Source: a virus. Taken from it: a DNA stretch of 27,661 nucleotides. The stretch covers positions 1 to 27,661 of the IMG/VR virus record IMGVR_UViG_3300044844_000549. One strand, 5' to 3'. Made by a program: the position numbers and the translations under genes. This document shows, one piece after another, positions 296 to 18,219 of this stretch (its first letter is position 1; each line of letters starts with the position of its first letter). The notes under the pieces are model-generated. The model had not been told where the DNA came from, did not search any database, and saw only the letters and a list, made by a program, of their open reading frames with translations.

Positions 296-633
296 GCTGC
301 CCCCACTGGAAACAGGAATTCCGAGTCGGCGCACTTCCATACCCGGGCGGATCTTCCGGAGCGCGTCGGGCGATAGCCGCTTGCCACGATCAATCCCTTG
401 TTCATCAGGTTGTTGACGGCTGCGCTGCATGTTTGATGTGTGAGGGCGAGCGCCTGCTCCAACTCGTCACAGGTGCTCGGGCATTCGCGGATGGCCTCCA
501 GCACCTTGTGCTGAATGGTTGCTAGCCGTGGCTGCACCGCATCCCATGCTGCATCCTGCGTGTCCCAGCGGGTTGCCTGCCCCGGCGTGCGCCGGGGAGG
601 CAACCCATTTGCTGCGAGGTCAGTCCTGCTCAT
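292..633 (-). CDS. Winged helix-turn-helix DNA-binding protein
   Basis: The 113-residue product carries a winged helix-turn-helix in its C-terminal two thirds. The sequence RLATIQHKVLEAI forms helix 1, STCDELEQALAL the second helix, THQTCSAAVNNLMNKGLI the recognition helix, and GYRPTRSGRSARVWK the basic wing. This is the MarR/ArsR-like fold common in small phage regulators. The ATG at 633 overlaps the end of the ERF gene by 14 bp and has a GGGGGA motif upstream; an in-frame TTG at 651 is less likely. It probably binds DNA, either as an early-operon regulator or as a helper of the recombination pair. The target is unknown. The fold is clear; the role is inferred. Confidence 0.75.
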   Translation of the reverse strand: MSRTDLAANGLPPRRTPGQATRWDTQDAAWDAVQPRLATIQHKVLEAIRECPSTCDELEQALALTHQTCSAAVNNLMNKGLIVASGYRPTRSGRSARVWKCADSEFLFPVGAA

Positions 634-1411
634 CGAAGATGTCCCCCGCAATCGAGGCGGGCTCCGGCGGCTTCATGCGGATCTGCGTGACACGGGGCGG
701 CGCATCGGCCTTCTTGGACGCCTCGGTGATGATCCACACCGTCTGCCCTTGCACGGCCTTGGCAACCCCGTGCAACTGCTCATCCCACACGAAGTAGGCG
801 TTGCCGTTGGAGTCCTTCAACTTCACATACGGAGTCTGATTCTTGCCAGCCACGCCCTCGTCCGCGTACTTGACGGTGATGGCAATCCAGTCACCGATAG
901 GTTCGGTCTGCGCTGGCTGCGCTGGCGTCGCCGCAGGCGCAGGCTTCTTTGCGGGAACCTCCGCCGCACCACGCGCCTGCGTGGGCTTGAACGCATCGCG
1001 GACCGGGGTCAAGCGGGTAGCGCGGTCGTTCTCCCCGTCATCGTCCTCGTCACCAACGATCCCGACGATGGCCGCGAGCGCGTACCTGCGAAGGTACGTG
1101 ATGCAGGATCCCATCTGCTGCACGGTGGCGTTGTTGGGCAGCGGGAACATGGCCACGTCCTCGATCGCCTGACCCGACGCGTGGATCAGCGAGGTAGTGA
1201 CGGTGACCATCCCGTTGGCCATGCTCACGGTCTGAACAGGGGCGATTCCATTCTTGGCAAGCGGAATGCGGATCGCGTTGAGGATGCTCCCGAGCGTGGC
1301 GTAGCGGTTCTTGAAGTGGGGGTTGACGCGGTCGAGTTCCGCATTGCGGATTTCCAAATTGCTCTTGGCGAGCGCAGCCGCCAGTTCTCCGATGAAGTCT
1401 GTGCGATTCAT
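620..1411 (-). CDS. erf: ERF-family single-strand annealing recombinase with extra C-terminal domain
   Basis: The 263-residue product has an ERF superfamily core in about residues 1-125. Typical signatures are the N-terminal helix with LAAALAKSNLEI, the segment FKNRYATLGSILNAIRIPLAKNGIAPVQ, and the VQQMGSCITYLRRYALAAIVGI block. These proteins anneal complementary single strands during phage recombination and usually pair with a 5'-3' exonuclease; here the exonuclease gene lies directly upstream, 3 bp away. After an Ala/Pro-rich linker (about 140-168) comes a second beta-rich domain (about 170-250) that resembles an OB-type fold, ending in an acidic tail (GDIFDEQD) reminiscent of SSB protein tips. 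The ATG has GGAGA 8 nt upstream. The family call is confident; the C-terminal domain call is tentative. Confidence 0.88.
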   Translation of the reverse strand: MNRTDFIGELAAALAKSNLEIRNAELDRVNPHFKNRYATLGSILNAIRIPLAKNGIAPVQTVSMANGMVTVTTSLIHASGQAIEDVAMFPLPNNATVQQMGSCITYLRRYALAAIVGIVGDEDDDGENDRATRLTPVRDAFKPTQARGAAEVPAKKPAPAATPAQPAQTEPIGDWIAITVKYADEGVAGKNQTPYVKLKDSNGNAYFVWDEQLHGVAKAVQGQTVWIITEASKKADAPPRVTQIRMKPPEPASIAGDIFDEQD

Positions 1412-1424
1412 GGGTCAGTCTCCG
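1407..1424 (-). repeat. 18-nt junction repeat, copy at ERF start
   Basis: On the minus strand the sequence CGGAGACTGACCCATGAA covers the Shine-Dalgarno (GGAGA), a TGA stop and the ATG of the ERF gene. An identical 18-nt copy lies at the exonuclease start. In this copy the TGA is the real stop of the exonuclease gene, whose last codons encode G-D. Confidence 0.85.
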
Positions 1425-2233
1425 ATAGGTGCGAGTAGGTCAGTGGTCGCCCAGTTGGGCATGCGGATTTCGGTCACGGTATCTGGCCAGCCTTGGCCGG
1501 GTTCGTCCATGTACTTGCGGTAGAGGTCGAGCAGTTCAGGCAGGCGGGCAGTCGCGAGGTCGAGATGGTCGGTGTGCAGCGCAGCGCACAGGCATGCGTG
1601 CGGTGCATTCTTCTCTACGACAATCAGGATCACGCTAGTGACCTCCTTGCCAGCGCGGCGCAGCATCTCGCGATAGAACGCGAACTGGGTCCAGTACCCG
1701 AAGTTGTGCGCAGCCTTGGCGAATTCCTGCGGCGATGCCAAGCCACCATGGGTCTTGATGTCGATGATGGTGCCGTGTTCCTCGATGAATCCATCGATGC
1801 GGGCCTTGCACGGGATGCCATCCCACTCACCAATGAGCGTCATTTCGGTGCAGGTCCCACACGCAGCGAGCAATTGGCGTGCGGTTTCGCAGGACATCAC
1901 GCCGCCACGCATCTCTTCGACAAGGTTCGACTCGTCCTTGGTAAGGACCGTGCGACCATCAGCGATCGTAAGAAATTTCTCCCACTCTTCCTTGCCAGCC
2001 TTCGTGCGGCGGTCGATGTCTGGGGAGGTGACGAAGTCCAGTTCGTACTTGGCTGGCGTCAGCAGCAGGCTGTGCAACGCACGGCCAACGCGAAATGCGG
2101 ATGAGTCGGTCTGGTTCTCCCGCTCGGCCAACAGGTGCAGCGGCGTGGCGCGGTCAAGGGTCTTGAGCGCGCTTGCGCTCATACGGTCGAGGCTGTGGTA
2201 TTCAGCCTCCGGCATGTCCATCACAATCTTCAT
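1415..2233 (-). CDS. RecE-like (DUF3799 / exonuclease VIII type) PD-(D/E)XK exonuclease
   Basis: The 272-residue product matches the C-terminal nuclease of RecE-type exonucleases. Residues 10-60 contain EYHSLDRMSASALKTL and AFRVGRALHSLLLTP, with the conserved His at 54. The catalytic core is at about 134-185: D147 in ARIDG, then IIDIK (D158, K160), followed by helix GYWTQFAFYREM with Gln183. Such enzymes resect double-stranded DNA from 5' ends to give 3' overhangs for an annealing partner, and the ERF gene follows immediately downstream. The ATG has GGAGA 8 nt upstream and shares an 18-nt initiation region with ERF. All expected active-site positions appear to be present. Confidence 0.9.
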   Translation of the reverse strand: MKIVMDMPEAEYHSLDRMSASALKTLDRATPLHLLAERENQTDSSAFRVGRALHSLLLTPAKYELDFVTSPDIDRRTKAGKEEWEKFLTIADGRTVLTKDESNLVEEMRGGVMSCETARQLLAACGTCTEMTLIGEWDGIPCKARIDGFIEEHGTIIDIKTHGGLASPQEFAKAAHNFGYWTQFAFYREMLRRAGKEVTSVILIVVEKNAPHACLCAALHTDHLDLATARLPELLDLYRKYMDEPGQGWPDTVTEIRMPNWATTDLLAPIGD

Positions 2234-2710: not shown

Positions 2711-2727
2711 CTGTCCTCCTCAAACGG

Positions 2728-3627: not shown

Positions 3628-3631
3628 AGGC

Positions 3632-3661: not shown

Positions 3662-3695
3662 ACACCCCCATCGGAAGTATTCATCGCAAGCCATG

Positions 3696-4254: not shown

Positions 4255-7200
4255 CTAGGGAATTCTTGGGACCGTCCGTCGTGCTGCCTGTTCGCGAATG
4301 CGCTTGCGAATTTCATCTGGTGAGTAGCGCATGCGCAGACGATCGACGGCTTCCTGCACGGTGCGCTCCTTGCCCTTCTCCTCTTCTGGAATCTGCTGCG
4401 CAACGAACCGATACAACTGGTACACGGGCACGCCACGCAACTGGCCCAGCGCCAGCAATGCAGGCACGGCGTTGTAGTACCACTCTCGGTCAGCCTGCAT
4501 CTCACGCGCTGCCTGTTCGATCGGTCGTACAACGATCGCCTGTCCCATCGCACGGCGATTGACGATCGATTGCAGGGCAGTCGAGAATCCGAGCCCAACG
4601 TATCCGAACGTGGAGCCGATCAATTCGGCTGCAACCGATGCCGGGACAGACTTCACGGCTTCAGCGAATGCCTTGTCTTCCTCGTCGTCAGGCTCGTCGG
4701 CTCCGCCGAACAGGGCCGCGATCGTCTTCGCCATGTATGCAACCGTCGCGACTGACGCCACACCGATGATCGTGCTGCTCGCGGTGTTGCCTGAAATGGC
4801 GAGCGCAGTACCGATTCGTCGTTCGCCAGACAGCCACGCACGGCGGATTTGGTTGCGCGCCTTGAGCGGGTCGCTGCTGAACACGAACAGCATGCGCCAC
4901 GTTGCGCCGGACCCACGCACTCGATTGACGGCAGCGAATGCAGTCTCATCGAATTCATCGCTGGCATTCTGGGTCAGCCGGAAGTCGCGCTCGGCCCGCT
5001 TCACCGCCTGCTCAAACGCATCGGTACCAGTCAAGCCCTCGTCCTTCGCCTCTGCCAGTCGTGCTTCCACCGCGACCGACATGATGTGCTCGTCCATCAG
5101 CCGGAGCATGTCGATCAATGCGGTGAGCGTGAGGTTCGCATTGTCGGTCGCATCCCCCAGCGCATTCAAACTGTCGGTGATGTTCTTGGCAATGGCCGCA
5201 TGCCCAGCGGCTGCGAACGCACGCGCCATTCCCTTGGCTGCGGTCATCACCTTGACTCGATCGCCAGCAGACAGCGTGCCTGACACGATGCCTCGCATCT
5301 GCATCTGATGCCGCCGCGTGAAGTAGCCACTGGCAGAATGGATCTCGTCAACGCGAGCAGCCCATGCGCTCGGTGAACGCAAGCGGATGGCCGCTCGCGA
5401 CAATCCCTCAACCCAGTAGTTGCCGGGGATCTCGCTGCCAAGACGAATCGTTCCACCGACCACGACCTTCGCTGCCGTGCGCGGCGACAACGACAGAACC
5501 GCGCCCGTGACGTTGTTGGTCATCCGGTCAATGGCGTTCGTTGACGCCCGGGCCGTCGCCCCGACGCCGTTGCTGAAGATCGCGAGGATCGCCTCCGCCG
5601 TGTTGCGTCCCATCTGCCGATCGATTGCCGCCACGATGTCGGGATCGGTGAGCACGGTCGATGCATCGCGATAGGGCTGCGCCATGTGAATCATGTCCAG
5701 CGCAACATGCAGGTGCCGCTCCCACGTCTGGAATGCATCGCGATAGATCAGCGGCTGGCGTCCACCTTCACGGGCATTGGTGAACCCAACGCTGGTCAGC
5801 GCACTGCGAACCAACGACCCATGCTGGTTCAGCACTGACTTTGACTCGCCTTGGAATTCGTCCATGTTTCGGACGCGAGGCCAGTAGTTCGTGATCACAG
5901 GGGGCTGGTCGCCCTCGACAAGGAACACGGCTTCCATTGCACGGTCACGGATCTGCACCTCAAGCACGTCCTTCATCGCATCGATCAGGCCGCGCTGTCC
6001 CGCAGTCAGCCCAGCACGAATCGCCCGGATCTCCGCGTCCGTCGGGAATACGGTGAGGGTCGTCTCGGCTCCTGCGAACTGCAAGCCCTGCCGTGCCGCA
6101 TCCGGTGCCGTCGGTGGAATGAACAACTCCAGCGTCTCGTCATCCATTGCCGCGATGGACATGGCCAAACCAACTGGAATTGTCCGCGTCCGACCTTCCA
6201 GCACCACGTCCATGGTCTCTGCGATCGACGTTCCGTTGAGACCGTTGCGAAGTGCGTAGTCTTCGATGCCAGCGTAGCCCGCCGCACGAAGTGCAGTGCC
6301 GAGCGAATTGACGATGCGCGCATGCTCAAGCCCAGCCTCGCCCTTCGCATCCTGTGCGCCGACGAGCATCTCGTTGATGACTCCGCCCATCGTGCCCTCG
6401 ACCTCAAGCATCAGGGTGTAGATGTCCGAGTTGGCAATGGAAATGCGGCGCGCCAGCGACTGGCGAGGTGGAAGGTCCGCACGATCCCGCATCGGCAGCG
6501 TCTGCCGACCAGTCATGGCGGTTGCAAGGCGGGTCTTCAGGTCGTTGTATCTGGCGACGCGCTGCTGCTGCCCGGCCACGAACGACGCCCGGTCCTGTTC
6601 GTACAGCAGCAACGCAGCCTGCACGTCATTTGCCGAATCCAAGACCTGCGCGTAGATGTTTACAGCGTTGACCACTGCCGAACCCATGCCCGGCACGGTA
6701 GCCACCGTTGCATAGATGCGACGGCGATTGGCCTGCCGGAGATTGGCGTCCGCCTTCGTCAGCAAACGCTCGATCGCCTGCCGCACGTCCCACCGCATTC
6801 CACGCTTGTTCATGCGCTTGCGCAGCGCAGAGATCACCCGCAGTTGCTGGCGAACTTCCTCATTGACGGCCAGTTTGGTTGCCTCGACTGCAACTCGATT
6901 GGCCTTTGCAATCGTCGTTGCGTTGGCGATTCGCGTGGCAAGCGGGCCGCGAAGATTGCGCGGAAGCATCATGGCCGCGTCCATGGCAATCCGCCGCGCT
7001 GCACGCTGCACTGCCAGCACGTTGCGTGACTTTTGGAGCATGGTCTTGATCGCGAAAATCTGGCGCTGAAGCGTGTCCTCACGCTGCTGCATCTTCTTCA
7101 GGATCTGCTGCCGACCACGCATCATTCCCTGCACTTGCCCAGCACGAAGACCCATCTGGTGCGCAAAGTCGATTGCCCGAGCAGACGCCTTGGCATCAAC

Positions 7201-10200
7201 CTTGATCCTGTGGGTCGCGGCGCGCAACGCAGACTCGGCCTGCGCAACGCGTGCTTCAAGCACCGCGACGCGTTCACGGAAAGGCTTGGCCGCGTTGCGT
7301 TCCTTCTGCATTCCAAACACCTGCCCGGCAACCAAGCCCTCGTTTCGTCCGATGGCATACGCCCAGTTGGCAATGCGATCGACACGATCCTCCGCTTCGG
7401 CCAGCGCCTCAATTGCTTCTCGCGTCTCGGACTTGCGATCCCGCATCTCCTCGCGCAGGCGGACCACGCGAGCACGCGCCTCCTCCAGTTTCTTCGCAGC
7501 CGCGCTTGCAGTCTCCGAAGCAGCGATCCGCTCGGCATCATTGATGGCCTTGACACGCTCCAGCCGCGCCTTCAATCGCTGCGCCTGTCCTTCCTTGCGC
7601 GATGCAACCAGTTCCGCGAACGACAACCTGCGCTGCAAGACCCGCACTTCGCGCATGGCGTTTGTACGCTGCGCAGCAGTCGTGTTCTCAAGATCCCGCA
7701 TCGTGCGCTGCATGTCGGAAATCTGTGACCGCAATGCGTCTCGCTCGGCATCTGAAGCGTCGGGATCTCGCGCCATGCTTTCTGTTGCGCTTGGCCCAGC
7801 ACCAACCGGAGTGGCAGTTCCGAACACCTGTTCAACGACCGACGTGCCCGGAATCTTGACTAGTTTGGCGTAGTTGCCATATGCGGACGAACTTGGGCGT
7901 TCTTCATTCCGCATCGAGGCAATGAATCCATCATGCGCATTGATGAGATACCCGATCAGACGCGCATCGGTATCCCCAAGAACCTTCGACAACACCATCT
8001 CTGGTTCCGTATTTCCAGACACCCGCATATATGCATCCACAAACCGTGGCAACAGCGCAACATTGACTTCGCCGGACTGTTCGCGCTCGATCATTGCGGT
8101 GCGCAGCGCAGCAATGCCAGCAGCGTATGCGTCCTGATTGGTCCGAAAATCAAGTGCTTCGTCAGGGATCAGTTCGCGAATGCTGGATGGTGCAACTCGT
8201 CCGTCGCTTACGAGGGCGCGAATGCTTTCAAACGTCATCCTCTGCCACGTCGCAAACGTGTTCGTGGAATTTCGGAGTGCATCGAGCCGCTTCCCGGCAT
8301 GCTCATAAATGCGCTCTATTGACGCCTCGTCCCTGTTCTGAAACAGGATGTTCGACAATTCCAAGGTGTTGGTCATTCCAGACACGCCAAGCAGCCATGC
8401 GGCAACCGTCCGCACGTGCTCCTGAAGATCACCGGGAAGGTTGACACGCTCTTCTTCTGGCGCGGCGCGGTTTTCTGCAATACCCTTGAAATACGTGAGC
8501 ACATCAGTAATAATCGCGCCGTTTGGCGGCATGTAGAAGTAATCGGGGTTGTACTCCACGAGCGTTTGCAGTTGAGTAAACCACCAAGGCCCTGTGATGT
8601 ATGGCTTGGCCTCCCCCTGTGCGCGGTAACCACCCGTGCCACCAAGATCGACATACAGCACGTTGCCAGTGTCCGGGTCAACAAGCGTGTTGTCACCGTC
8701 CATGCCAATGACATCCCAGTTGCGTGCCAATGCATGCAGAACGATGTGTTCTCCCAAGTCCGAATATGTCAGTGATTTTTCAAACGCTCGCTGCCCCATC
8801 TCCTTTCGGAACTGCCCGATCGTTTGATACCCCTCGGCGTACCGAGTGATCAAAACCCGGTTGAGATCCGGTGTTCCAACCCGGACATCCATTCCATGGT
8901 CAGGAACAGGCAGTCCAAAGAACCGATACGCGTTGAAGTATTGCAGTTCGTTCCGACCGAAGTTCGCGTTGCCAAGATCGCCCTTTACAACCCATCGTTC
9001 ACCCGTAGGCGCAGTCTGAAGCGTTGCTCCGGTGGATCCGCCAAGTGGCGAACTGCCCGACAGCGCCGCGAGCGGAGGAACATTCCCTACTCGCATCTCT
9101 GCAAAGTCCATTTGCTCCAGCGTTTCACCAGTGAACGGGCTGATGAGGTTGCGGCGTCCGCTGACGACAATTTCATCGTGCGTTCCAACGTCGTCGTTGA
9201 CCCCAACAAAGTGAACAACGTCGTACCCGTTAGCAAGCGCAACTTGCTGAACCTTATCCGTTGAGATAGCAACGTATTCTAGTTCATCGCGAATATCCAA
9301 CGGCAACGCCGAACTCGGAATGTTGTCCCACGACGCACCATGGCACTCAACACGAAGCGGGTTCGTGGCAATCACGTAGTACGCATGAATGTATTTGCCA
9401 AAGACCTTGAGTTCATCGGTATCGACCGTTGACAGCGACAACCCGCGAAGCAACTTGCCAGTTTCCGACCGATACGGGGAAAACTTCACCTCGTCCGTCG
9501 CGTGATAAAGCATCACTGGGTTGGTCGGATTTGGGCTTCCAATAAACTTGGCGTCTCCGGAAGCGACCAGCGCCTTGAGTTCGTCAGACGGTTCGCGTGC
9601 GAACGACTCAAGCGTAAACCCGCTTTCAGCGGCCCACCGAAGTTCTGCTTCGATTGCGGCCTTGGTCTTGCGGACCTCCGCATCCTGCGCCTCTTCGCGG
9701 GCAAAGGACTCGGATTGCGGCTCGGCAACAACACCAGCATCTGCACCATCCGCCACCGTGGCGTCGAGATCATTTTCCGCCAATGCGCTGCGCAACTGTG
9801 CCTGCGCCGATGACGTGCCGAGATCCACCGACATCGCCTCGCGCATCGCCACGCGGTAGTCCTGACCCACCGGGTCATCCGCCGCGCCGAACATGGCGTA
9901 CAACTCCTTCTCCACATACCACAGCGCGGCCTGCGCGTCTGCAACCTCATACTGCAAGCCAGTCTCGTTCTTGACAACATCAATCGCTTGCGTCAGAATC
10001 GACCGCATCTGCGTCCGAATGTAATTCGACTCTGGAGCCGCCGCCGACGCCGAAAGCGCCTTGGCATACCGCACAAGCGCAGCCTCAAGCGGGGACTTCT
10101 TCCGCAACTTCAGCGAGGTGCCAACCACCACGCGATTGCGGACATCCTTTGCAAATTCAACGTCGAAGTTCGTCGCAACCTGATCGAGCAGCGCCGGATT

Positions 10201-13200
10201 TTCCAAGACGTTCGCGGGGATTCGACGCAATACCTGCTCTGCTTCGGCAAACCCGACGGCATCAGGATTCCCTGCGGCAACGATTGCCCGTGCCTTCGCC
10301 AGTTCCTGTGCGACATCAGCAATAGCCGACCGAATCGCCGTGTCATCTTGTCTTCGCAGCATGCCAAGCGGACGCATGAAGGTCCGCGTGAACCAGACAT
10401 CTGCGGTCAGCGTGTCGAATCGCTTGTAAAGGTTGTTGAAGAACGATCCGATCTTCGGACCAAGAACGGACGACATGTACACGATGTCGTCGGCGGCGTC
10501 GTTGATCAACACCACCTTTCCGTTCTCGGACAACAGGTTCATCTCGCGCAAGGTCTTGTTGTGCTGGCGCACCTTCGCCTTGGTCAACATGAACTTCTCG
10601 ACAGCCTTCCATGAGCCGAGAGTCTCACGAAGGACGTTCAACTTGTTCAGGTTGCCGATCATCGGCCCAACGTGACGGGCATCGAACGACGGAGGAATCA
10701 CGATGCGATCACGCCCGGCGCTCACCCACGCCTCATACAAGGCCCGGGTCAGTAGTGCGTTGTTCGACACCCGTTCGCCCTGCGACGTGATTGCCAGCAT
10801 CAACGCGAATACGCGTCGATCGTCGCTCGTCTTCTTTGCCAACTCCGGGTATCGGCGCGACGCTTCCGACCACATCTGGTCAACGAGGCGTCCATACCAT
10901 TCCAGCGCCGAGGCCGACCCAGCCTTGGTGGCCGCATACTTGAGGTCGTCAGCAATGGATCGCACCATGATCTGCTCGACCTGCTTCGGAATCGGATTGG
11001 CCTGCGTGTATTCGGTGAGCCAGCCCATGATGGACTGGCTGAAGGAATCAAGCAGCACCTGAAGTTCACCAACCGTGTACTTCCGCGACCCGGCCATCCG
11101 ATAGGACATGATGCCCTTGTCGGCCAGAATGTCTCCGAACGTGTTTGCCTTGGCATCGGCAAGCGCGCTAGTTGACTCCGCGAGATCCTCCTGCGCTTGC
11201 ATCAGCGCCTGCACCAGAGGATCACCAGAAACCCATGAGGACACCTGCTGGTCAATGTCGCGGATTCGTTCCGTCAATGCAGCGATGCGATCCTTCGCAT
11301 CGGCGGCGTCGGCAAGGCGGACCAGTCGAGCCTCTGCCGACTGATCAACGTCATCCTTTGCGTATGCGCCCTTCAGTTTGGAATACTGCCGCAACGACTC
11401 GCGCTTCGCAACAATGCGCGCACGTTCATTCGTGATTGCGACAATGGTGCCGATCTCTGCCGTCATGTACGACGCGGTCTCGGCCAACGACGCGATGTCA
11501 CGACCCTGATTGAGTCGGACGATCGACGCTTGCGTCTGCGCAAGTTCGGCAGGCGATGCGTCCTTGCGCCGCAGTTCCGCACGAAGACGCTTGCGCTCGG
11601 CTTCGATGGCGTCCTGCGCTTCTGCGACAGCACGTTCCGACGATCGCACGCGAGCCATCGCATCGGCAATCACCGGAATTGCCGCCATGCGCTCGGCTTC
11701 TGCCGCTTCGGGATCGACCTTCACCGCAGCCGGAAGCCACTGGCTTGCAGACAGCAAACGCCCCTTGCTGTCTGGAGTCAGCGTGTCCAACTCGCGCTTG
11801 AGCGCGAGCGTGAGTTTTACGAGAGAGATGCGTCGAGCACTGCCGACGAAGATGTCAGAATCTGCCGACGGGTTTCTGCGATCCCCTTGATCGTCGCGAG
11901 CACCTCCTGCCGCGTCCACTTGCTCCACACGCGGGCTGGGTCTGCCTTCTCCATCGACTGATACACCAACGACAGCATCGCGTTCGCCTCGTCCTGCCGC
12001 AATCCTTTCCAGTCGGCTGGGGTCAGCGGTGAAGCCCGCAAGGCCAGTGCTACGAATCCGCTCTCGTTCGGACTCAGAGAGGTTGAGTTTGGCGAACCAG
12101 ACTCCGGGGTAATTCGTGACTCGTCCATTTGCATCTGTCTCCGGTACCCAGCCTTCTGACTTCCAGTACTTGGAAAGCAGGTCGATGTATTCATCCAGCG
12201 TCATGCCGGATGGAGGGGTCAAATACTGCGGATCAAACTGCGCATACCCGTTGGGCATCGCCTGCTCGTCCGCCACGAATCCGAACATGCGATACGCAGT
12301 CGGCAACTTGCCGTTCTGCTCTGCCTGCCCGGGCCGACGCACATCGTAGCAATCGCACCTCATCTCGGTGTTCGGATACCGAGAGATTGCGTGCAACATC
12401 ACTGGAGCAATCACGTCGGTGATATCGGTCTCATTGCTGTAAAGACCGACAGCCTCGTCGTATCCGCCGATGCGCTTGCCTTCAGAATCCAAAGACTCCA
12501 CGCGCTTGATCATGTACGCCACGTCAAGCCCGGGAATCCCATAAGGCTCGTAGGACGTGCGCGTCGTCCCCGTTTCGTTCGTTTCGATTGTCGGATTGGC
12601 AATCTGATCGAGCGTGTACTGGGTCAGCGTCTGCGTAGCCTTGTTTCGCTTGTGGCCTTGCAGGTATTCGCTCGGCGTGAGCGGACGAAAATTCAGCGTC
12701 GCCATCGACGCCGCTGCCGCCATGAAACGGCGGGCCATGTCAAGCCGTGCACCCTCGCGCATGTTCGGCTGGCCAACCAACGCCTCGCGCAACTTTGCTA
12801 CTGCTGTGGACTTCTGAATATCGCCCACCTGCGCCTTGCGCGCTGCCGCTTCGGCCTTCTCGCGCTTGGTCGCAATGACCTTCCCGACTCGTTCCGCCGC
12901 CTGCTTGGCAACGAACTTTCGTGCCGTCTCAATATCACGTGCGAAGTTCACATCCATGTTGCCAGCCCACAGCAACGTGCGGGCAAGTGGCGACAGTGAG
13001 GGATCCTGCACCTTCGGGCCAACGACGTTGGACACCGCCGCCGCCCGGGCAACGGTTTCAAATACCGCCATCGCCGCCATGGCCTCGCGGCCTAGGAACC
13101 CCCGTGCGGCGGCAAATGCCACCGCCGGGCCGAAGATGCCGCCACGGGTAGCCGCCGCTGCCGCTGCAAAGGCGTTGGCTGCGCCCTCCTGCTCCAGACG

Positions 13201-15381
13201 GGCCGCGCCCGCCCGGGCGACTCCCGGGGCAATCGGAGCCTGCTGGACGCCCTCCAGCGCCCCAAGAGCGGCCCCGGCCTGCTCCATGGCCGCGAGGTCC
13301 ATCCGACCCGTAGCAGCCGATTCTGGAGCCCCACGCCCAGCGTATTCGACCCCAGCCGCGTAGATCGGGGCAAGCCCCGCCCGCTCCATAAACACCTCGG
13401 CCAACTCCGGCTGGAACATCTGAATATCGTGGAAGACCTCCTCAAGCGCGGAAGCCATGATCCGATCAGGCTTTGCATCTGCGTTCAGGTACACCACCCC
13501 ACGGCTTCGCATCGAGTGGAATGCCGGGTTGAACTTGCCGGACGGGCGGAACCACACCACCTTCCGCCCCAAAGCCTCGATCTGCTTTTGGACACGCTTG
13601 CCAGACTTCGGGGCCGTGGTTTCGGTCATGGTCATCCCAGCCCGGGTGCCCATACCACTCAAGACGGTGGCCGGATCTGCCTGCTCCATAACCGCAGGCA
13701 TCTCGCTGATCTTCTCCGCCACCGCATTGTGGATGGCCGAAGCCATCAGCCGATCGGTGACAGCCGAGCCGATCGAAGCATCAATGCGTGCGATGTCGTC
13801 CTTGATGTCCTGAATCGCCTGCGCGTCCATGGCATCCATGGCACCCGCAAGACCAATGTCCAGACGCTGGCGTTCGTCCAGCATCGACTCAACCTCGGTC
13901 TGGATATCCGCCTGCCGCTGCGCCAAATCAGCGAGGAACACGCCGCGCTGCTGCTGGTCCATTCCGTTCAGGCTGTCCAACGCACTGGACACGCTGGCAA
14001 TCTGCGTCTGGTCAAGGCCGTCCTGCCAGTTCACCCGACGCTTCAGCGCGTCACCATGGATGGTCCGCAATGCACGTTCGTGGTCCGTTTCGGGCCGCAT
14101 GGCTTCACGGCGATTCATCAGCGCCCGATTGCCCGACACTGCGAGCACAGATCCCGTTCCGCCGATTCCACCCGCGATGGTTCCAATGAACGCCCCGTAC
14201 ACACCGTCAGCCAAATCCTTTGACAGCGGTGCTGCCGTGAACGGAGCCATCAGCGCAGCGGTGATTCCCTCTTCCGCGCCCTCCTCAAGTCCAGACACGC
14301 CAATGATTCCGGACGCACGGCCAAGCCACCCGTTCCTGAACGAGGCAGTCCCGTTGGAAATTCTGGCAAACGTATCAAGACCCTTCTGGCCAGCCTTGGA
14401 CTGCAACGCCTTGTTGACAATCGGCGCGCCGCGCTCGATGAACGGACGCAATGCCGCCTTGCCAACCTTGGTATTGAGCCCAACACCCGCAATCATTGCG
14501 AGCGCCTTGCCACCGATTGCAGCGCCACCAGCCTCCACTCCAGCCTCAATGACGGCGCGGGCTTCGGCTCGCGTTCTGGATTCCTGAAGCGAGTACTCCG
14601 TCAGCGGACGCCCCTCGATTGCGTCATCCGCACGCTGCTGGTCAACCTCGTCCATGGCTTCAATGAAGCCCGACGAATATGACGTGAACGGACTCATCGC
14701 CGTGCTGATGATGCCTGCCGCAACTGGGACATTTCCCGTCGCCAGCGCACCAGCAACACCAATCATCTGCGGGACATTCTGCCCAACTGCACGCGCTACG
14801 TCCGGAATCACACCCTCCGGGGCACCGCGCATCATGCCTTGCTGCGCGCCACGCATGGCAATCAATTCCGACCGCAAATCCTCAACAGTGAGCCCAGACT
14901 TCTCCGGCTCGACAGCCATGGACAGTTTGTCTGCAAATGCCTGAGCGACAAAGTTGTGCATTGCCGGATCGACATCGGAGAACCACGACGCGATGTACTC
15001 ACTCGGTCGCATGAGCGACCGAATGAACTGCCCTCGCATGCCCGGAGTGGCAATGGTCTGTGCAGCCTGTTCGGCGGTCATCCGCAACCCACGCTCAATC
15101 TCGCGCAGGGGCAGGATCCCGCCAGACCCAGTCATCCCAATTCCGCCTTCCGGCGTGATCAGCAGGTCTTCATACTGCTTGGCAGCACCCTCCAGAAGAT
15201 CCGCTTCGCCGGGTGCCGTGCCCGGCGTGGCACCGGGCGCTTCCGACAATTGCGTCTGAACGATCGAGTCGATCGCGTCCTGAAAGGACATTTGCGGTGC
15301 GGACTGCGGACGCATAGGTTCCGCGCCCGGCTGCGCAGACATGCGCAGCGCCTCGTCGATCGCCTTCTGGAAACTGGACAT
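4255..15381 (-). CDS. Giant internal virion / DNA-ejection polyvalent protein, 3708 aa
   Basis: A single open frame covers 11.1 kb. The ATG has AGGAAG 5 nt upstream, 8 bp after the previous gene. It follows three internal virion genes, the place of T7 gp16-like ejection proteins, and probably enters the host with the DNA. Segments: N-terminal twin motifs SFQKAIDEAL/SFQDAIDSIV (2-41); hydrophobic Gly/Ala-rich stretches (about 195-420); metalloprotease-like helix EEVFHD (647-652), lacking the first His of HExxH; GNAT-like CDCYD (1009-1013); coiled coil (about 1180-1330); ADP-ribosyltransferase-like domain (H1960 in YHAT, E2070 in DEIVV); kinase-like domain (K2133, N2221-W-D2223, D2230-N2231, D2245-x-G-G); long coiled coil (about 2540-2800); C-terminal membrane-prone part (about 3533-3556) and basic tail. 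The size and layout fit large polyvalent phage proteins. Domain functions are inferred from motifs. Confidence 0.85.
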   Translation of the reverse strand: MSSFQKAIDEALRMSAQPGAEPMRPQSAPQMSFQDAIDSIVQTQLSEAPGATPGTAPGEADLLEGAAKQYEDLLITPEGGIGMTGSGGILPLREIERGLRMTAEQAAQTIATPGMRGQFIRSLMRPSEYIASWFSDVDPAMHNFVAQAFADKLSMAVEPEKSGLTVEDLRSELIAMRGAQQGMMRGAPEGVIPDVARAVGQNVPQMIGVAGALATGNVPVAAGIISTAMSPFTSYSSGFIEAMDEVDQQRADDAIEGRPLTEYSLQESRTRAEARAVIEAGVEAGGAAIGGKALAMIAGVGLNTKVGKAALRPFIERGAPIVNKALQSKAGQKGLDTFARISNGTASFRNGWLGRASGIIGVSGLEEGAEEGITAALMAPFTAAPLSKDLADGVYGAFIGTIAGGIGGTGSVLAVSGNRALMNRREAMRPETDHERALRTIHGDALKRRVNWQDGLDQTQIASVSSALDSLNGMDQQQRGVFLADLAQRQADIQTEVESMLDERQRLDIGLAGAMDAMDAQAIQDIKDDIARIDASIGSAVTDRLMASAIHNAVAEKISEMPAVMEQADPATVLSGMGTRAGMTMTETTAPKSGKRVQKQIEALGRKVVWFRPSGKFNPAFHSMRSRGVVYLNADAKPDRIMASALEEVFHDIQMFQPELAEVFMERAGLAPIYAAGVEYAGRGAPESAATGRMDLAAMEQAGAALGALEGVQQAPIAPGVARAGAARLEQEGAANAFAAAAAATRGGIFGPAVAFAAARGFLGREAMAAMAVFETVARAAAVSNVVGPKVQDPSLSPLARTLLWAGNMDVNFARDIETARKFVAKQAAERVGKVIATKREKAEAAARKAQVGDIQKSTAVAKLREALVGQPNMREGARLDMARRFMAAAASMATLNFRPLTPSEYLQGHKRNKATQTLTQYTLDQIANPTIETNETGTTRTSYEPYGIPGLDVAYMIKRVESLDSEGKRIGGYDEAVGLYSNETDITDVIAPVMLHAISRYPNTEMRCDCYDVRRPGQAEQNGKLPTAYRMFGFVADEQAMPNGYAQFDPQYLTPPSGMTLDEYIDLLSKYWKSEGWVPETDANGRVTNYPGVWFAKLNLSESERERIRSTGLAGFTADPSRLERIAAGRGERDAVVGVSVDGEGRPSPRVEQVDAAGGARDDQGDRRNPSADSDIFVGSARRISLVKLTLALKRELDTLTPDSKGRLLSASQWLPAAVKVDPEAAEAERMAAIPVIADAMARVRSSERAVAEAQDAIEAERKRLRAELRRKDASPAELAQTQASIVRLNQGRDIASLAETASYMTAEIGTIVAITNERARIVAKRESLRQYSKLKGAYAKDDVDQSAEARLVRLADAADAKDRIAALTERIRDIDQQVSSWVSGDPLVQALMQAQEDLAESTSALADAKANTFGDILADKGIMSYRMAGSRKYTVGELQVLLDSFSQSIMGWLTEYTQANPIPKQVEQIMVRSIADDLKYAATKAGSASALEWYGRLVDQMWSEASRRYPELAKKTSDDRRVFALMLAITSQGERVSNNALLTRALYEAWVSAGRDRIVIPPSFDARHVGPMIGNLNKLNVLRETLGSWKAVEKFMLTKAKVRQHNKTLREMNLLSENGKVVLINDAADDIVYMSSVLGPKIGSFFNNLYKRFDTLTADVWFTRTFMRPLGMLRRQDDTAIRSAIADVAQELAKARAIVAAGNPDAVGFAEAEQVLRRIPANVLENPALLDQVATNFDVEFAKDVRNRVVVGTSLKLRKKSPLEAALVRYAKALSASAAAPESNYIRTQMRSILTQAIDVVKNETGLQYEVADAQAALWYVEKELYAMFGAADDPVGQDYRVAMREAMSVDLGTSSAQAQLRSALAENDLDATVADGADAGVVAEPQSESFAREEAQDAEVRKTKAAIEAELRWAAESGFTLESFAREPSDELKALVASGDAKFIGSPNPTNPVMLYHATDEVKFSPYRSETGKLLRGLSLSTVDTDELKVFGKYIHAYYVIATNPLRVECHGASWDNIPSSALPLDIRDELEYVAISTDKVQQVALANGYDVVHFVGVNDDVGTHDEIVVSGRRNLISPFTGETLEQMDFAEMRVGNVPPLAALSGSSPLGGSTGATLQTAPTGERWVVKGDLGNANFGRNELQYFNAYRFFGLPVPDHGMDVRVGTPDLNRVLITRYAEGYQTIGQFRKEMGQRAFEKSLTYSDLGEHIVLHALARNWDVIGMDGDNTLVDPDTGNVLYVDLGGTGGYRAQGEAKPYITGPWWFTQLQTLVEYNPDYFYMPPNGAIITDVLTYFKGIAENRAAPEEERVNLPGDLQEHVRTVAAWLLGVSGMTNTLELSNILFQNRDEASIERIYEHAGKRLDALRNSTNTFATWQRMTFESIRALVSDGRVAPSSIRELIPDEALDFRTNQDAYAAGIAALRTAMIEREQSGEVNVALLPRFVDAYMRVSGNTEPEMVLSKVLGDTDARLIGYLINAHDGFIASMRNEERPSSSAYGNYAKLVKIPGTSVVEQVFGTATPVGAGPSATESMARDPDASDAERDALRSQISDMQRTMRDLENTTAAQRTNAMREVRVLQRRLSFAELVASRKEGQAQRLKARLERVKAINDAERIAASETASAAAKKLEEARARVVRLREEMRDRKSETREAIEALAEAEDRVDRIANWAYAIGRNEGLVAGQVFGMQKERNAAKPFRERVAVLEARVAQAESALRAATHRIKVDAKASARAIDFAHQMGLRAGQVQGMMRGRQQILKKMQQREDTLQRQIFAIKTMLQKSRNVLAVQRAARRIAMDAAMMLPRNLRGPLATRIANATTIAKANRVAVEATKLAVNEEVRQQLRVISALRKRMNKRGMRWDVRQAIERLLTKADANLRQANRRRIYATVATVPGMGSAVVNAVNIYAQVLDSANDVQAALLLYEQDRASFVAGQQQRVARYNDLKTRLATAMTGRQTLPMRDRADLPPRQSLARRISIANSDIYTLMLEVEGTMGGVINEMLVGAQDAKGEAGLEHARIVNSLGTALRAAGYAGIEDYALRNGLNGTSIAETMDVVLEGRTRTIPVGLAMSIAAMDDETLELFIPPTAPDAARQGLQFAGAETTLTVFPTDAEIRAIRAGLTAGQRGLIDAMKDVLEVQIRDRAMEAVFLVEGDQPPVITNYWPRVRNMDEFQGESKSVLNQHGSLVRSALTSVGFTNAREGGRQPLIYRDAFQTWERHLHVALDMIHMAQPYRDASTVLTDPDIVAAIDRQMGRNTAEAILAIFSNGVGATARASTNAIDRMTNNVTGAVLSLSPRTAAKVVVGGTIRLGSEIPGNYWVEGLSRAAIRLRSPSAWAARVDEIHSASGYFTRRHQMQMRGIVSGTLSAGDRVKVMTAAKGMARAFAAAGHAAIAKNITDSLNALGDATDNANLTLTALIDMLRLMDEHIMSVAVEARLAEAKDEGLTGTDAFEQAVKRAERDFRLTQNASDEFDETAFAAVNRVRGSGATWRMLFVFSSDPLKARNQIRRAWLSGERRIGTALAISGNTASSTIIGVASVATVAYMAKTIAALFGGADEPDDEEDKAFAEAVKSVPASVAAELIGSTFGYVGLGFSTALQSIVNRRAMGQAIVVRPIEQAAREMQADREWYYNAVPALLALGQLRGVPVYQLYRFVAQQIPEEEKGKERTVQEAVDRLRMRYSPDEIRKRIREQAARRTVPRIP

Positions 15382-15389: not shown

Positions 15390-16928
15390 CTACTTACGGT
15401 ACTTGACGAGCAAGGCCACGAACTTCGCGTAGCGCGCACGACCCTCACGTGAGGTGTCTGCCGCCAGTTGCTTCGATGCCTCGATGATGTCGCTGACCGG
15501 ATCACCTGAATCCGGCATGTCGTACCCGAGAGCCGACACTTCATCGCGAAGTTCGGCATACTGCTTCCTATCCTCTTCGGTAATGATCCCGGTAATGGCT
15601 TCGGTCTGTTGAGCAGAAGCCTCGCTGCGACGAGCGCCAGCCAGAGCACCCGCCGCACGGGCACGCTCCGACGCCAACTTCGCCTGCTGCATTTCCGTAG
15701 CCTGTGCCTGCTCTTCGCGGCCAGCCTGAATGCGGGCCATTCCGCCAAGCGTCCGCTGCCGCGTCGGATCCGTGGCTGGCGATGCCTCAAGAGCCGGGGC
15801 GTTGGCGTACTGCATGCCCATTTCCTGCGTGGGGCCATAGATGGGACGCATCCCCCCACCGCCCGTCGATGCCATCACAGCAGGTCCAAGACGCTGGGCA
15901 ATGTACTTGGCCGCAATGTCACGGTCTGCCGGATTCCATGGCCGACCCCAGCCGACCTGCCTCGTCATCTCCTCCGCTCGCTGTGCTAGCGTGGGAATTC
16001 GGAGTTCCGGCGGCATGGCCTCGATCGCATCGCGACCAAGGTCAGAGATGGCCATGTCGGCCATGCTGATCAACGCATTGCTGTTCCCGGTCGTCATGTA
16101 GTACGACGGGAATGCAGCCGCACCGACAACCGAACCGTCCGGAGGCGCATACACACCAAACTGCTGAAGGTTCAGCAACTTGATTCGCAAGTGCTGGTCC
16201 ATCTGCGCCTTGTAGTAGTCCGGGATGGAGTCATCGGACATGACACCTTCCAACTGACTGGTGTACTGGTCGGTCTTGTAGTTGACGAACGACTCTGCCT
16301 GCATGCGCGCCACCTCAAGATTGGTGGCATTCACGCGCTGGGTCATGGCTTGGATGACGGAATCATCCTTGGCCTGCACTCGCGCATACATCTCCTGAAC
16401 TGCCGTGTACGCGCCCTGCGGATCACGCTCAAGTGCGCTCTCCGCAAACATATTGAAGCCCGGGGCATAGGCTTCCAGTTCCTGCGCCATCTGGCGGATA
16501 GGGGCGCGCAGCCTGTCGGCGTCACGCTTCTTTCGCATCTGCATGGCCATGCCGATACGAGCCTGCGAACGCTGCTGAAGTGCCGCAAGCCACTGCTGTT
16601 CCGAAAGACGAATTGCCTGACGCTGTCCGGCCTTGTCGGTGAACAACACAGCAGGCGTTCCGTCTGGCATCGTGCCAAAGTCAAGAGCCTCAAGACCCGT
16701 GTAGTACCCGTTCTCCAGCCCCTGCTCAACAGCACCGAAAGTACCGTATGGAGCAATCTCACGCGAACCACGCGGGTCGAGTGCCGACTGCTTCAGCAGT
16801 TCGTCGTCCATCAGCGGATCCGGCTGCTCGGCCTGTTGTGGAGCCGCAGCAAAGCCCTCATTCGGACGAAGCGTCAGCGGAGGCTGGTTGGCGAAGTTCG
16901 TAGGCTGTGGATTGGGGAACGCGCTCAT
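15390..16928 (-). CDS. Internal virion protein, 512 aa
   Basis: The product is rich in Gln, Ala and Met, with a Pro/Asn-rich N-terminus (first 40 residues) and several helical stretches. The C-terminal third has a strongly charged helix (about 415-450) rich in E, A, R and Q, probably coiled coil. No enzymatic motif is seen. Its place between two smaller internal virion-type genes and the giant ejection protein suggests the middle ejection protein, comparable in position to T7 gp15, although no sequence similarity to gp15 can be claimed. The ATG overlaps the previous stop as TAATG with a weak Shine-Dalgarno, so translation is probably coupled. Confidence 0.65.
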   Translation of the reverse strand: MSAFPNPQPTNFANQPPLTLRPNEGFAAAPQQAEQPDPLMDDELLKQSALDPRGSREIAPYGTFGAVEQGLENGYYTGLEALDFGTMPDGTPAVLFTDKAGQRQAIRLSEQQWLAALQQRSQARIGMAMQMRKKRDADRLRAPIRQMAQELEAYAPGFNMFAESALERDPQGAYTAVQEMYARVQAKDDSVIQAMTQRVNATNLEVARMQAESFVNYKTDQYTSQLEGVMSDDSIPDYYKAQMDQHLRIKLLNLQQFGVYAPPDGSVVGAAAFPSYYMTTGNSNALISMADMAISDLGRDAIEAMPPELRIPTLAQRAEEMTRQVGWGRPWNPADRDIAAKYIAQRLGPAVMASTGGGGMRPIYGPTQEMGMQYANAPALEASPATDPTRQRTLGGMARIQAGREEQAQATEMQQAKLASERARAAGALAGARRSEASAQQTEAITGIITEEDRKQYAELRDEVSALGYDMPDSGDPVSDIIEASKQLAADTSREGRARYAKFVALLVKYRK

Positions 16929-17410
16929 TACTTCACCAGTCCAAGAGTGCGAGCGGCTGCGGTCTGCCCGTAACCGATCTTGATTCCGAACGGCTCCTCT
17001 GCCTGCTTCTCCGTGGCTCTTGGCGCAATGCCAGCAACCATGCCGCCGATGTCAGGCATGACCGATGCGCGCTCCGCCTGCGAACGGTAGATATCTTCCT
17101 CTGCCTGCGACTTGGCCATCATGTCCGCGACGCTTCGCTGGGTGGCCTGTTCGGCCCGGAACGCCATGACAGGAGCGTCGAGTTTGGCCTGAAGACCCTG
17201 CGTCGATCCAAGAATGGCCCCAGCAAACGAACTGTATTCGTTGCCCGGCTGATATGCAGCAAGACCCGTGGCAAGCCCACGAAGGTAGTTGCCAGCAAAC
17301 TGCGCGGTTCCAGACAGGAACGAATCCCAGCCAGACTTCGACTTGGCTTCAACCTGTGGAAGCGTCTGAAATGCCGCACGGGCTCCAAGACCTGCCTGAA
17401 ACATACTCAT
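16928..17410 (-). CDS. Small internal virion protein, 160 aa
   Basis: The product has a hydrophobic, Gly/Ala-rich central segment (around AGNYLRGLATGLAAY, residues 38-52) flanked by helical, charged parts, a pattern common in small ejection proteins that meet membranes. No family is recognised. The ATG overlaps the previous stop (TAATG) and has an excellent GGAGGAGG upstream, implying high expression. It is flanked by other virion genes in the same orientation with overlapping ends, so it is probably assembled into the particle in several copies. Confidence 0.6.
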   Translation of the reverse strand: MSMFQAGLGARAAFQTLPQVEAKSKSGWDSFLSGTAQFAGNYLRGLATGLAAYQPGNEYSSFAGAILGSTQGLQAKLDAPVMAFRAEQATQRSVADMMAKSQAEEDIYRSQAERASVMPDIGGMVAGIAPRATEKQAEEPFGIKIGYGQTAAARTLGLVK

Positions 17411-18219
17411 TACTGACCTCCTCCAAAGGCTCGTCCAAACGGCGAAAGCGCCTGCCCAAACCCACCGCCGATTCCTTCGGCAAGCGCACCAATTCCAGCG
17501 CCGAACAGAGCACCACCAAAGGCATTGCCAGCAGCCATGTCCTGTTGCGCCTTATTCATTTCTGCGGCATACCGCGCATCAATAGGACGAGTCATAAACC
17601 CAAGACTCGATTGAAGTTGCGCCGCCCGAGCAGCCTGCGCCGCCGTGGTGTATTGCTGATACTGTCCACTCTGATATTGCGCCGATCCAAGGCCAGCCGC
17701 AAACAGGCTCTGGGCACCCTGCTGTTCCATCTGTGCAAGCGCAGATGCCTGTGCCATCTGGGCCGATGCAAGCGTCTGTGCATACTGCTCCTGCACGGCT
17801 CCTGCCTGAAGTGCGCCCTGCGCCGCCACAGCATTGACTGCTGCCTGACCAAATGTGGTGTTAGAAAGACCAGTCAGCATTCCGCTGACTTGCTGTCGCG
17901 CAACCGATAGGTCAGTTTGCTGCTTGAGTAGCGCAAGCGTTGCATCGCGCCCGCTCGCAAGCGTCTGATACGCCTCCTGCCCCGCCGCACGAAACGCCTC
18001 GCGGGATTGCGCCATTAGGCTGCTGTACTTACCCACAGCATCGTTATATGCCTGTGAGTAAACCTGCGCGTTGGCGGTCCGTTCCTTTAGAAACTGATCA
18101 ATGATTTTGCCATACTCGGCGTCCGAATATGTTCGTACACCAGCATAAGCCCTTTCCATCTTTTTGATGGCTTCCCCATAGTCCGTTTCTCCACCAAACA
18201 AGTTGCTGAAGAGGCCCAT
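17410..18219 (-). CDS. Internal virion protein (T7 gp14-like in position and composition), 269 aa
   Basis: The protein starts MGLFSNLFGG, is rich in Ala, Gln and Tyr, and ends with a Gly-rich hydrophobic segment (about 228-269, AFGGALFGAGIGAL and following). This N-terminal amphipathic start plus Gly-rich tail is typical of small podovirus ejection proteins that help form a channel through the envelope. The middle is a long Ala/Gln helix. The ATG overlaps the nozzle gene stop as ATGA, with AAGGGA about 9 nt upstream. The role comes from composition and position; no catalytic motif is present. Confidence 0.65.
   Translation of the reverse strand: MGLFSNLFGGETDYGEAIKKMERAYAGVRTYSDAEYGKIIDQFLKERTANAQVYSQAYNDAVGKYSSLMAQSREAFRAAGQEAYQTLASGRDATLALLKQQTDLSVARQQVSGMLTGLSNTTFGQAAVNAVAAQGALQAGAVQEQYAQTLASAQMAQASALAQMEQQGAQSLFAAGLGSAQYQSGQYQQYTTAAQAARAAQLQSSLGFMTRPIDARYAAEMNKAQQDMAAGNAFGGALFGAGIGALAEGIGGGFGQALSPFGRAFGGGQ

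What the first reader, a model, noticed from the sequence alone, without database searches (positions are those of the whole stretch)
4255..15381. One 3708-residue ejected polyvalent protein carrying several toxin/effector-like domains
An unbroken 11.1-kb frame follows three internal virion genes. It shows separate regions resembling a peptidase, an acetyltransferase, an ADP-ribosyltransferase and a kinase, joined by coiled coils and hydrophobic stretches. A protein delivered with the genome that has so many possible host-modifying activities would act before any phage gene is expressed. This is the main candidate for an undescribed system in the window.
Basis: partly seen in the sequence, partly recalled or inferred. 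Interest (0 to 1): 0.78.

Follow-up and report, generated by a model that had tools for sequence, protein, structure and literature searches.

The report
Giant phage protein with swappable payloads
A giant protein that this phage probably packs in its particle and sends into the bacterium with its DNA has constant ends and an interchangeable middle that carries different enzyme-like parts, and related phages appear to swap these parts, often at a short repeated joint.

Summary
The 3708-aa frame (4255-15381, minus strand) is real and lies in a conserved late-gene block. Two of the four proposed activities are supported: a divergent ADP-ribosyltransferase (~1935-2090) and a HipA/CtkA-like kinase fold (2101-2370). 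The 'peptidase' is zincin-like but reads EEVFHD instead of HExxH (intact in 3 of 21 records). The 'acetyltransferase' is unproven.

Twelve full-length giants (2351-3928 aa) share an N-shell (~1-850) and a C-shell (~2548-3708) around an exchangeable 'payload bay'. Some giants with 87-99% identical shells carry unrelated or strongly diverged payloads; giants with 34-57% identical shells share payloads at 65-87%. A joint, S[FYM][AS]R, occurs 26 times in the bays (0.76 expected) and never in the C-shell. Eight of 14 hand-picked identity breakpoints lie within 5 residues of it; in this gene, identity to relative L002 drops from 100% to 80% at the codon after ESFAR (1926-1929). Other breakpoints do not lie on joints, and polyvalent proteins of other phages lack the joint.

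Best reading: an ejected polyvalent protein (a known kind) built as constant shell plus swappable cargo. Ejection, enzyme activities and the recombination mechanism are inferred.

The parts
4255..15381 (-). whole giant frame, 3708 aa
   Evidence: conserved in relatives
12832..15381 (-). N-shell, residues 1-850: constant delivery part (inferred role)
   Evidence: present in 12 of 12 full-length giants compared; alignment
13426..13443 (-). zincin-like site EEVFHD (residues 647-652), first metal-binding His replaced by Glu
   Evidence: 3 of 21 records (L020, L021, L023) read HE[LV]FHD, 18 read EE[VMA]FHD
11992..12681 (-). conserved module, residues 901-1130, proposed acetyltransferase; identity unproven
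   Evidence: 72-75% identical in L004, L006, L022; order alpha-beta-beta-beta-alpha-beta in a model with mean pLDDT 57.8; no family or credible PDB match
11092..11706 (-). long helices, probable coiled coil, residues 1226-1430
   Evidence: DSSP on model; least conserved part of the left bay (20-30% in residues 1261-1380)
9862..11094 (-). helical module, residues 1430-1840, function unknown
   Evidence: related to modules of giants in Limnohabitans phage DC33 and phages ctEw122, ctQRb9 (24-28% identity, E 5e-11 to 6e-16); faint resemblance to the DUF7178 module of L028 (hhalign prob 20)
9697..9708 (-). joint 1, SFAR, residues 1892-1895
9595..9606 (-). joint 2, SFAR, residues 1926-1929; identity breakpoint against L002 at its last codon
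   Evidence: 100% nt identity over residues 1870-1929, 80% over 1930-1949
9112..9579 (-). ADP-ribosyltransferase-like domain, residues 1935-2090
   Evidence: hhalign against ART-PolyVal payloads of relatives and other phages: prob 92.6; BFVD fold matches named PolyVal ART; dS 0.86 against L002
8272..9081 (-). kinase-like domain, residues 2101-2370 (HipA/CtkA-like fold)
   Evidence: invariant K, E, NWD, DN and D across window, L004, L022 and two other phages; PDB fold searches
7768..7779 (-). joint 3, SMAR, residues 2535-2538, 13 residues before the C-shell
4258..7740 (-). C-shell, residues 2548-3708: constant part
   Evidence: 44-68% identical to the C-shells of the other 11 full-length giants; no joint motif in any of them
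15390..16928 (-). 512-aa late gene, probable ejection protein (inferred from position)
   Evidence: homologue directly upstream of the giant in 17 of 17 loci that reach
16928..17410 (-). 160-aa late gene
   Evidence: synteny
17410..18219 (-). 269-aa late gene
   Evidence: synteny
18219..20372 (-). 717-aa tail gene
   Evidence: PHROG tail appendage, E 5e-4; synteny
1415..2233 (-). exonuclease VIII-like, possible partner in payload exchange (inferred)
   Evidence: phrog_412 E 4e-60; downstream of the giant in 13 of 13 loci that reach
620..1411 (-). Erf-like single-strand annealing protein, possible partner in payload exchange (inferred)
   Evidence: phrog_2324 E 5e-37; in 12 of 12 loci that reach

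Best explanation
It is a virion-packaged, ejected polyvalent protein built as a constant carrier with an exchangeable cargo bay. The N-shell and C-shell are the delivery parts (packing beside the 512-, 160- and 269-aa neighbours, threading through the tail, entering the cell); this is inferred from their constancy and position. The bay between them carries enzymatic or effector modules. Here these are an unassigned conserved module, a helical module, an ADP-ribosyltransferase-like domain and a HipA/CtkA-like kinase domain; relatives carry ART-PolyVal, GNAT, an HELMH zincin, DUF7178 or uncharacterised modules instead. After ejection the cargo would modify host proteins, or disarm defence, before phage genes are expressed (inferred). 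Bay modules are exchanged between phages by recombination (shown by the identity patterns). Many exchanges end at the in-frame joint S[FYM][AS]R, which lets modules of any length be inserted without disturbing either shell (co-occurrence shown, purpose inferred). The annealing recombinase/exonuclease pair encoded just downstream is a plausible agent (inferred).
For: 12 full-length giants share both shells but differ in bay length (2351-3928 aa in all) and content. Same shells, other payload: L008/L011 (N 87%, C 92%; bays share only a 27-aa stretch at the C-side joint), L008/L012 (N 96%, bays unrelated), L011/L012 (N 87%, bays unrelated), L021/L023 (N 99%, C 91%; bay 32%), L026/L028 (N 92%, C 90%; bays share only joint-proximal stretches). 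Other shells, same payload: L008/L020 (41/52%, payload 86%), L008/L021 (39/49%, 87%), L020/L028 (34/47%, 65%), C-shells only: L021/L024 (53%, 77%), L018/L024 (57%, 74%), L008/L024 (47%, 66%). Giants of other phages with no detected shell relation carry the same payloads: ctQRb9/L020 67%, DC33/L012 66% (shells of DC33 compared). Joints: 26 in 10,540 bay residues (0.76 expected), 5 in 10,647 N-shell residues, all within 37 residues of its end, 0 in 14,119 C-shell residues; 0 in 15 other window proteins. Breakpoints: 8 of 14 within 5 residues of a joint, 0.72 expected, 0 of 200,000 random placements reach 8; the window's own gene breaks at joint 2. Domains: ART, kinase; relatives. Late-gene synteny; MCP 14, SU10-type adaptor 94.
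Against: No virion proteomics or ejection evidence. Window domains stay below family thresholds and both structure models are weak (mean pLDDT 58). The ART lacks the strand-2 Tyr (Ser or Cys there). 6 of the 14 breakpoints are not within 5 residues of a joint, one is 864 away. In the window-L002 comparison several other switches (near 2190, 2250, 2370, 2450, 2590) and the downstream end of the ART block are not on joints, and joints 1 and 3 show no switch. No joint marks the left edge of the window's bay near 850-890. Giants of DC33, ctEw122 and ctQRb9 carry related payloads without the joint, and 0 of 11 outside polyvalent proteins have it, so the joint is not required for payload movement. 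The motif was defined on the same proteins that were tested, the breakpoints were picked by hand, and several share a protein. Some close pairs keep the same payload (L004/L006 96%, L025/L026 87% over 513 aa).
Confidence: 0.7

Rival explanations
1. The joint is a proteolytic processing site rather than an exchange seam: the giant is cut at S[FYM]AR after or during ejection to free the payloads, and breakpoints fall there because module borders do.
For: The joint is short, ends in Arg and stands 10-13 residues before the C-shell in 9 of 12 full-length giants. Processing by zincins is proposed for polyvalent proteins (PMC5512222 abstract and section passages). A small HExxH protein is encoded downstream of the giant in the window and in 6 of 13 loci that reach.
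Against: The joint persists although the shell's own zincin site is degenerate in 18 of 21 records and the small HExxH gene was not found in 7 of 13 loci. Synonymous choice at the joint's Ala is skewed (GCC 22 of 32 against 27% background, P 1e-6, not independent), which points to the DNA.
Confidence: 0.3
2. Ordinary mosaic domain shuffling at flexible linkers. The joint is a chance-amplified remnant of linker sequence copied along with payloads and has no role of its own.
For: Exchange inside the window's bay is patchy and often not at joints. Outside polyvalent proteins share payloads without the joint. L026 and L025 carry one SMSR hit that looks internal to a module.
Against: 26 hits against 0.76 expected; joints flank unrelated payload types (ART in L018, GNAT in L022, HDAFGH-type in L020 and L028, HELMH zincin in L011), so they are not part of one domain.
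Confidence: 0.35
3. The giant is mainly a structural ejection protein, like T7 gp16 or the non-catalytic parts of N4 vRNAP, and its enzyme-like regions are decayed and inactive.
For: Zincin site degenerate; the ART lacks the strand-2 Tyr; no CoA-site motif was recognised in the proposed acetyltransferase.
Against: The kinase keeps its invariant K, E, NWD, DN and D. ART and kinase regions are under purifying selection (dN/dS 0.18, 0.17 and 0.39 in the three windows). Payloads are replaced rather than lost, and relatives carry above-threshold ART-PolyVal.
Confidence: 0.2

Closest known systems
Polyvalent proteins (Iyer et al. 2017, PMC5512222)
   Same: Huge multidomain phage protein beside late genes, with ART, zincin-like and kinase-like domains; relatives match Pfam ART-PolyVal.
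   Different: Shells matched no Pfam, PHROG or NCBIfam family. Constant shells with an exchangeable bay and a recurrent joint are not described in the parts I saw; that paper raises recombinational variation only as a possibility, for Verrucomicrobium spinosum.
Giant protein of Limnohabitans phage DC33 (and phages ctEw122, ctQRb9)
   Same: Same gene position (after tail tube/stabilization and lysozyme-type genes) and shared payload modules, up to 66-67% identical to those of relatives.
   Different: No detectable shell relation (hhalign prob 0.7 and 0.1); N-terminal LPD22 in DC33 and ctQRb9; no S[FYM][AS]R joint.
N4 virion RNA polymerase gp50
   Same: A ~3500-residue ejected protein with an enzyme in the middle and delivery/encapsidation parts at both ends (PMC12633501 abstract; PMC5512222 section 5).
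   Different: No RNA polymerase match in the window protein.
MuF polymorphic toxins of temperate phages (PMC5576092)
   Same: A constant phage part carrying interchangeable toxin domains, proposed to ride into the cell with DNA (passages).
   Different: Variable part there is C-terminal; here it is internal. No MuF domain matched.
T7 gp16-type ejection proteins
   Same: Large last member of an ejection-protein gene set; domain swapping among ejection proteins is described (PMC8954989 passages).
   Different: No lytic transglycosylase match in the giant; far larger.

Membership tests
Polyvalent proteins | two or more domains of disparate activity in one chain | tested here: met
   ART-like and kinase-like regions in the window; in relatives ART-PolyVal plus other modules
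Polyvalent proteins | phage members lie beside late virion genes | tested here: met
   conserved synteny with tail genes; MCP and adaptor upstream
Polyvalent proteins | transferred into the host with the DNA | not testable with these tools
   needs proteomics or ejection assays
Pfam ART-PolyVal (window domain) | score above the curated cut-off of 31.2 bits | tested here: not met
   no match in window tiles
Pfam ART-PolyVal (window domain) | profile relationship to family members | tested here: met
   hhalign prob 92.6, pairwise E 5e-7
Tox-ART-HYD2 clade (H-Y-D/E) | His in strand 1 | tested here: met
   His invariant in 5 of 5 sequences
Tox-ART-HYD2 clade (H-Y-D/E) | Tyr in strand 2 | tested here: not met
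   Ser or Cys at the aligned place; alignment there is uncertain
Zincin metallopeptidase (MPTase) | HExxH | tested here: not met
   EEVFHD in the window; 3 of 21 records intact
HipA/CtkA-like kinases | kinase fold | tested here: inconclusive
   48 of 50 rows of the VIA list are known kinase-fold proteins, but Z only 5.4-7.0 on a model of mean pLDDT 58
HipA/CtkA-like kinases | conserved ATP-site Lys, Glu and catalytic/metal Asp-Asn-Asp | tested here: met
   invariant in 5 of 5 aligned sequences from window, L004, L022, Mecenats66, Touem01; residue roles assigned from general knowledge
GNAT acetyltransferase (window residues 901-1130) | family match or CoA-binding R/QxxGxG/A motif (motif recalled) | tested here: inconclusive
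   no family match; strand order suggestive only; L022 has a separate GNAT module, PF00583 21.9 bits against cut-off 20.7
N4-type virion RNA polymerase | T7-like RNAP domain | tested here: inconclusive
   no Pfam, PHROG or PDB-sequence match
MuF polymorphic toxin | MuF domain | tested here: inconclusive
   no match in the whole protein or in the tiles scanned

The most novel reading that the evidence does not exclude
The giant is a true exchange platform: a conserved in-frame joint, S[FYM][AS]R with a preferred codon string, is kept as a docking seam at which the phage's own ExoVIII/Erf pair, encoded directly downstream in every relative seen that reaches, splices new effector cassettes into an ejected carrier protein, giving phages a rapidly renewable set of pre-expression weapons.
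Probability: 0.3. Interest if true: 0.82.

Novelty: new variant of a known kind. Interest (0 to 1): 0.62.

Why it matters
Polyvalent proteins have been described mainly as a catalogue of domain architectures. This family offers close pairs of phages with near-identical carrier ends and different cargo, so which part delivers and which part acts can be separated by experiment. It is also a natural library of early-acting, probably anti-host or anti-defence modules, in a phage lineage whose capsid, portal and C-shell had no match in 50,697 phage records. If the joint is a real seam, it would be a natural in-frame cassette system for loading ejected proteins.

Tried and rejected
Whole-protein Pfam, PHROG and PDB scans gave nothing useful (one weak ribosomal L1 row). 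Tiling helped only for relatives.

PDB profile searches with the ART-kinase, helical and acetyltransferase-region alignments gave no credible match.

The model of residues 880-1950 (mean pLDDT 57.8) gave no PDB fold match below E 0.001; absence proves nothing.

Prophage or host search: C-shell and N-shell found no relative in genome contigs, so no host is assigned. The N-shell was not searched against the phage collection.

Considered and rejected: (a) the joint is a general polyvalent-protein feature: 0 of 11 outside proteins have it, 2 of 11 have one DIxFSR-like site; (b) the joint is the tail of the ART domain: it also flanks non-ART payloads; (c) the window's helical module is DUF7178: only prob 20; (d) DC33-type shells are homologous: not detected.

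The search (a made-up start/ribosome-site pattern) served only to learn that the window is a virus record.

Dropped rows: in the motif count 5 of 17 proteins were left out as incomplete (L006, L012, L024, L025, L027), and near-identical copies (L001, L002, L003, L007, L019) and fragments (L005, L009, L010) were not entered. One joint in L011 straddles the N-shell border and is counted in neither part.

Papers: PMC5512222 abstract, outline, sections 5, 9, 11, 32, 34 and passages; PMC12633501 and PMC3945230 abstract and outline; PMC5576092, PMC8954989, PMC12195039 passages; other papers only as listings. I found no description of a constant-shell/payload-bay build or of the joint in those searches, which cover open-licence papers only.

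Full report
1. Observation. The frame is real: 3708 aa at 4255-15381 minus, against a longest stop-free frame of 392 codons in 200 shuffles. The record is a 27,661-base virus record in IMG/VR. Thirteen loci with relatives were found from the whole protein, 18 from the C-shell alignment and 17 from the N-shell alignment; these sets overlap and include several cuts of the same contigs.

2. Surroundings. Upstream in reading order lie the major capsid protein (phrog_9953, E 4e-11), an SU10-type adaptor (38.5 bits), a tail gene and three small late genes. The order 717-269-160-512-aa genes, giant, ExoVIII, Erf is kept. The 512-aa gene is next to the giant in 17 of 17 loci that reach, ExoVIII follows in 13 of 13 and Erf in 12 of 12 (21 loci compared, two of them, L018 and L019, matching alike). 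The capsid protein and the portal of relative L002's phage have no match in 50,697 phage records.

3. Domains of the window protein. Whole-protein and tile scans found no curated family.
ART: aligned with the ART-PolyVal payloads of relatives and of DC33 and ctQRb9, the window domain gives hhalign probability 92.6. Strand-1 His and the Glu of HDEIVV or HNEIVV are kept, the strand-2 Tyr is not. Five of the 50 listed viral fold matches are named ADP-ribosyltransferases, the best at E 1.6e-5.
Kinase: residues 2101-2261 match a domain in Morganella phage Mecenats66 and Pseudomonas phage Touem01 (weak in the full database, E 1e-3 and 4e-3; 27-28% identity). K, E, NWD, DN and D are invariant. In the PDB fold list, nearly all of the 50 rows shown are kinase-fold entries by title, though only 2 of 1195 matches have E below 0.001. 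VIA ranks CtkA and HipA among the first rows (Z 6.5-7.0), and 48 of 50 rows are kinase-fold proteins, the other two being pre-40S ribosome chains. The model is weak (mean pLDDT 58.1), so the fold assignment rests on the agreement of sequence and fold evidence.
Zincin: the site reads EEVFHD. Relatives L020, L021 and L023 read HE[LV]FHD, which supports a zincin origin; 18 of 21 records, many near-identical, have Glu in place of the first His.
Acetyltransferase: not shown.

4. Constant shells, exchangeable bay. All 12 full-length giants (window, L004, L008, L011, L013, L018, L020, L021, L022, L023, L026, L028) share N-shell and C-shell; the middle is shared over its whole length only by the window, L004 and L022. 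Near-identical copies and fragments behave likewise. Pairwise comparison shows both halves of the exchange pattern: near-identical shells with unrelated bays (L008/L011, L008/L012, L011/L012, L026/L028; L021/L023 strongly diverged) and divergent shells with similar payloads (L008/L020, L008/L021, L020/L028, L021/L024, L018/L024, L008/L024). Against this, L004/L006 and L025/L026 keep the same payload. Payload content in relatives: ART-PolyVal above cut-off in L013 and L018, below it in L008 and L028; in a separate genome search 2 of 6 records passed; DUF7178 in L028; GNAT in L022 just above the PF00583 cut-off; an HELMH-containing module in L011 read from sequence, with no Pfam match; an HDAFGH module in L008, L020 and L028 that recurs in 200 phage records, 187 of them Mycobacterium phages with partial matches.

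5. The joint. S[FYM][AS]R occurs 26 times in the bays (expected 0.76), 5 times in N-shells (all within 37 residues of their end; expected 0.82) and 0 times in C-shells (expected 1.1). It lies 10-13 residues before the C-shell in 9 of 12 full-length giants; L022 (154), L026 and L028 (56) differ. It is absent from 15 other window proteins and from 11 polyvalent proteins of other phages. GCC encodes its Ala in 22 of 32 cases against 27% background. The motif was found by eye on the same proteins, so the enrichment is descriptive.

6. Breakpoints. DNA identity between related giants often stops at a joint: L008/L011 at residues 846/844 and 1364/1480 (joints 846/844 and 1366/1482), L011/L012 at 873/870 (joints 870/867), L025/L026 on both sides. 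Of 14 breakpoints that I picked by hand from 8 of the 14 pairs, 8 lie within 5 residues of a joint; random placement gives 0.72 on average and never 8 in 200,000 trials. The six misses are 9, 27, 35, 43, 47 and 864 residues away. In the window's own gene, identity to L002 is 100% over residues 1870-1929 and 80% from 1930, the first codon after joint 2. Several other switches in that pair are not at joints, and the other two joints show none. dS is 0.86 in the ART window and 0.45 in 2251-2400, against 0-0.38 in the other 23 windows; L004/L006 peak at the same place, 2251-2500, with dS 0.40. Third-position GC is 0.58-0.62 in residues 2001-2600 and 0.64-0.76 elsewhere. These patterns fit import of divergent alleles under continued constraint.

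7. Mechanism. Shown: constant shells, exchange of the bay, recurrence of the joint, purifying selection. Inferred: packaging, ejection, host modification, and recombination by the neighbouring ExoVIII/Erf pair. Rad52-like phage recombinases including Erf of D3 are reported to drive mosaicism between divergent sequences (PMC3945230 abstract and section titles).

8. Known or new. Polyvalent proteins are known (PMC5512222). Processing by zincins and cassette-like variation were proposed there; the text has no 'linker', 'swap' or 'shuffl'. The build described here is a new variant of that kind. It is not an N4-type RNA polymerase or a MuF toxin by the tests made.

Noticed in passing
window 2441-2710 (-): Small 89-aa protein with HELLH (phrog_87 metallo-protease, E 0.016; no Pfam match) close downstream of the giant; found in 6 of 21 loci, 13 of which reach that far.
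   Followed up: partly
window 22232-23065 (-): Frame whose middle (RNPIDRFCSGVAHF) recalls a sulfotransferase-type P-loop region among tail genes; from memory, no Pfam match. L009 has a 42% identical relative.
   Followed up: partly
window 22843-23895 (-): Possible leucine-rich-repeat protein among tail genes (LRR_6, 14.5 bits, below cut-off).
   Followed up: no
window 20372-21424 (-): Mtd_N (major tropism determinant N-terminal domain, 49 bits) in a tail-fibre-like protein. No diversity-generating retroelement was looked for.
   Followed up: no
window 15262-15381 (-), residues 1-40 of the giant: Two copies of an SFQxAID-like motif at the N-terminus (MSSFQKAIDEAL, MSFQDAIDSIV), partly kept in L004 and L009; possible docking peptide.
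   Followed up: no
L020:9140-10060: HDAFGH-type module of unknown function with matches in 200 phage records, 187 of them Mycobacterium phages.
   Followed up: partly
L053 (PQ492659.1): The record of Limnohabitans phage DC33 bears the taxonomy Inoviridae, while its paper describes a tailed phage placed in Caudoviricetes (PMC12195039 passages).
   Followed up: no
window 8272-8430, residues 2318-2370, and L004/L006 residues 2251-2500: The end of the kinase region is the fastest-changing stretch in both close pairs compared (76% aa in 2251-2400 and 82% in 2251-2500).
   Followed up: partly
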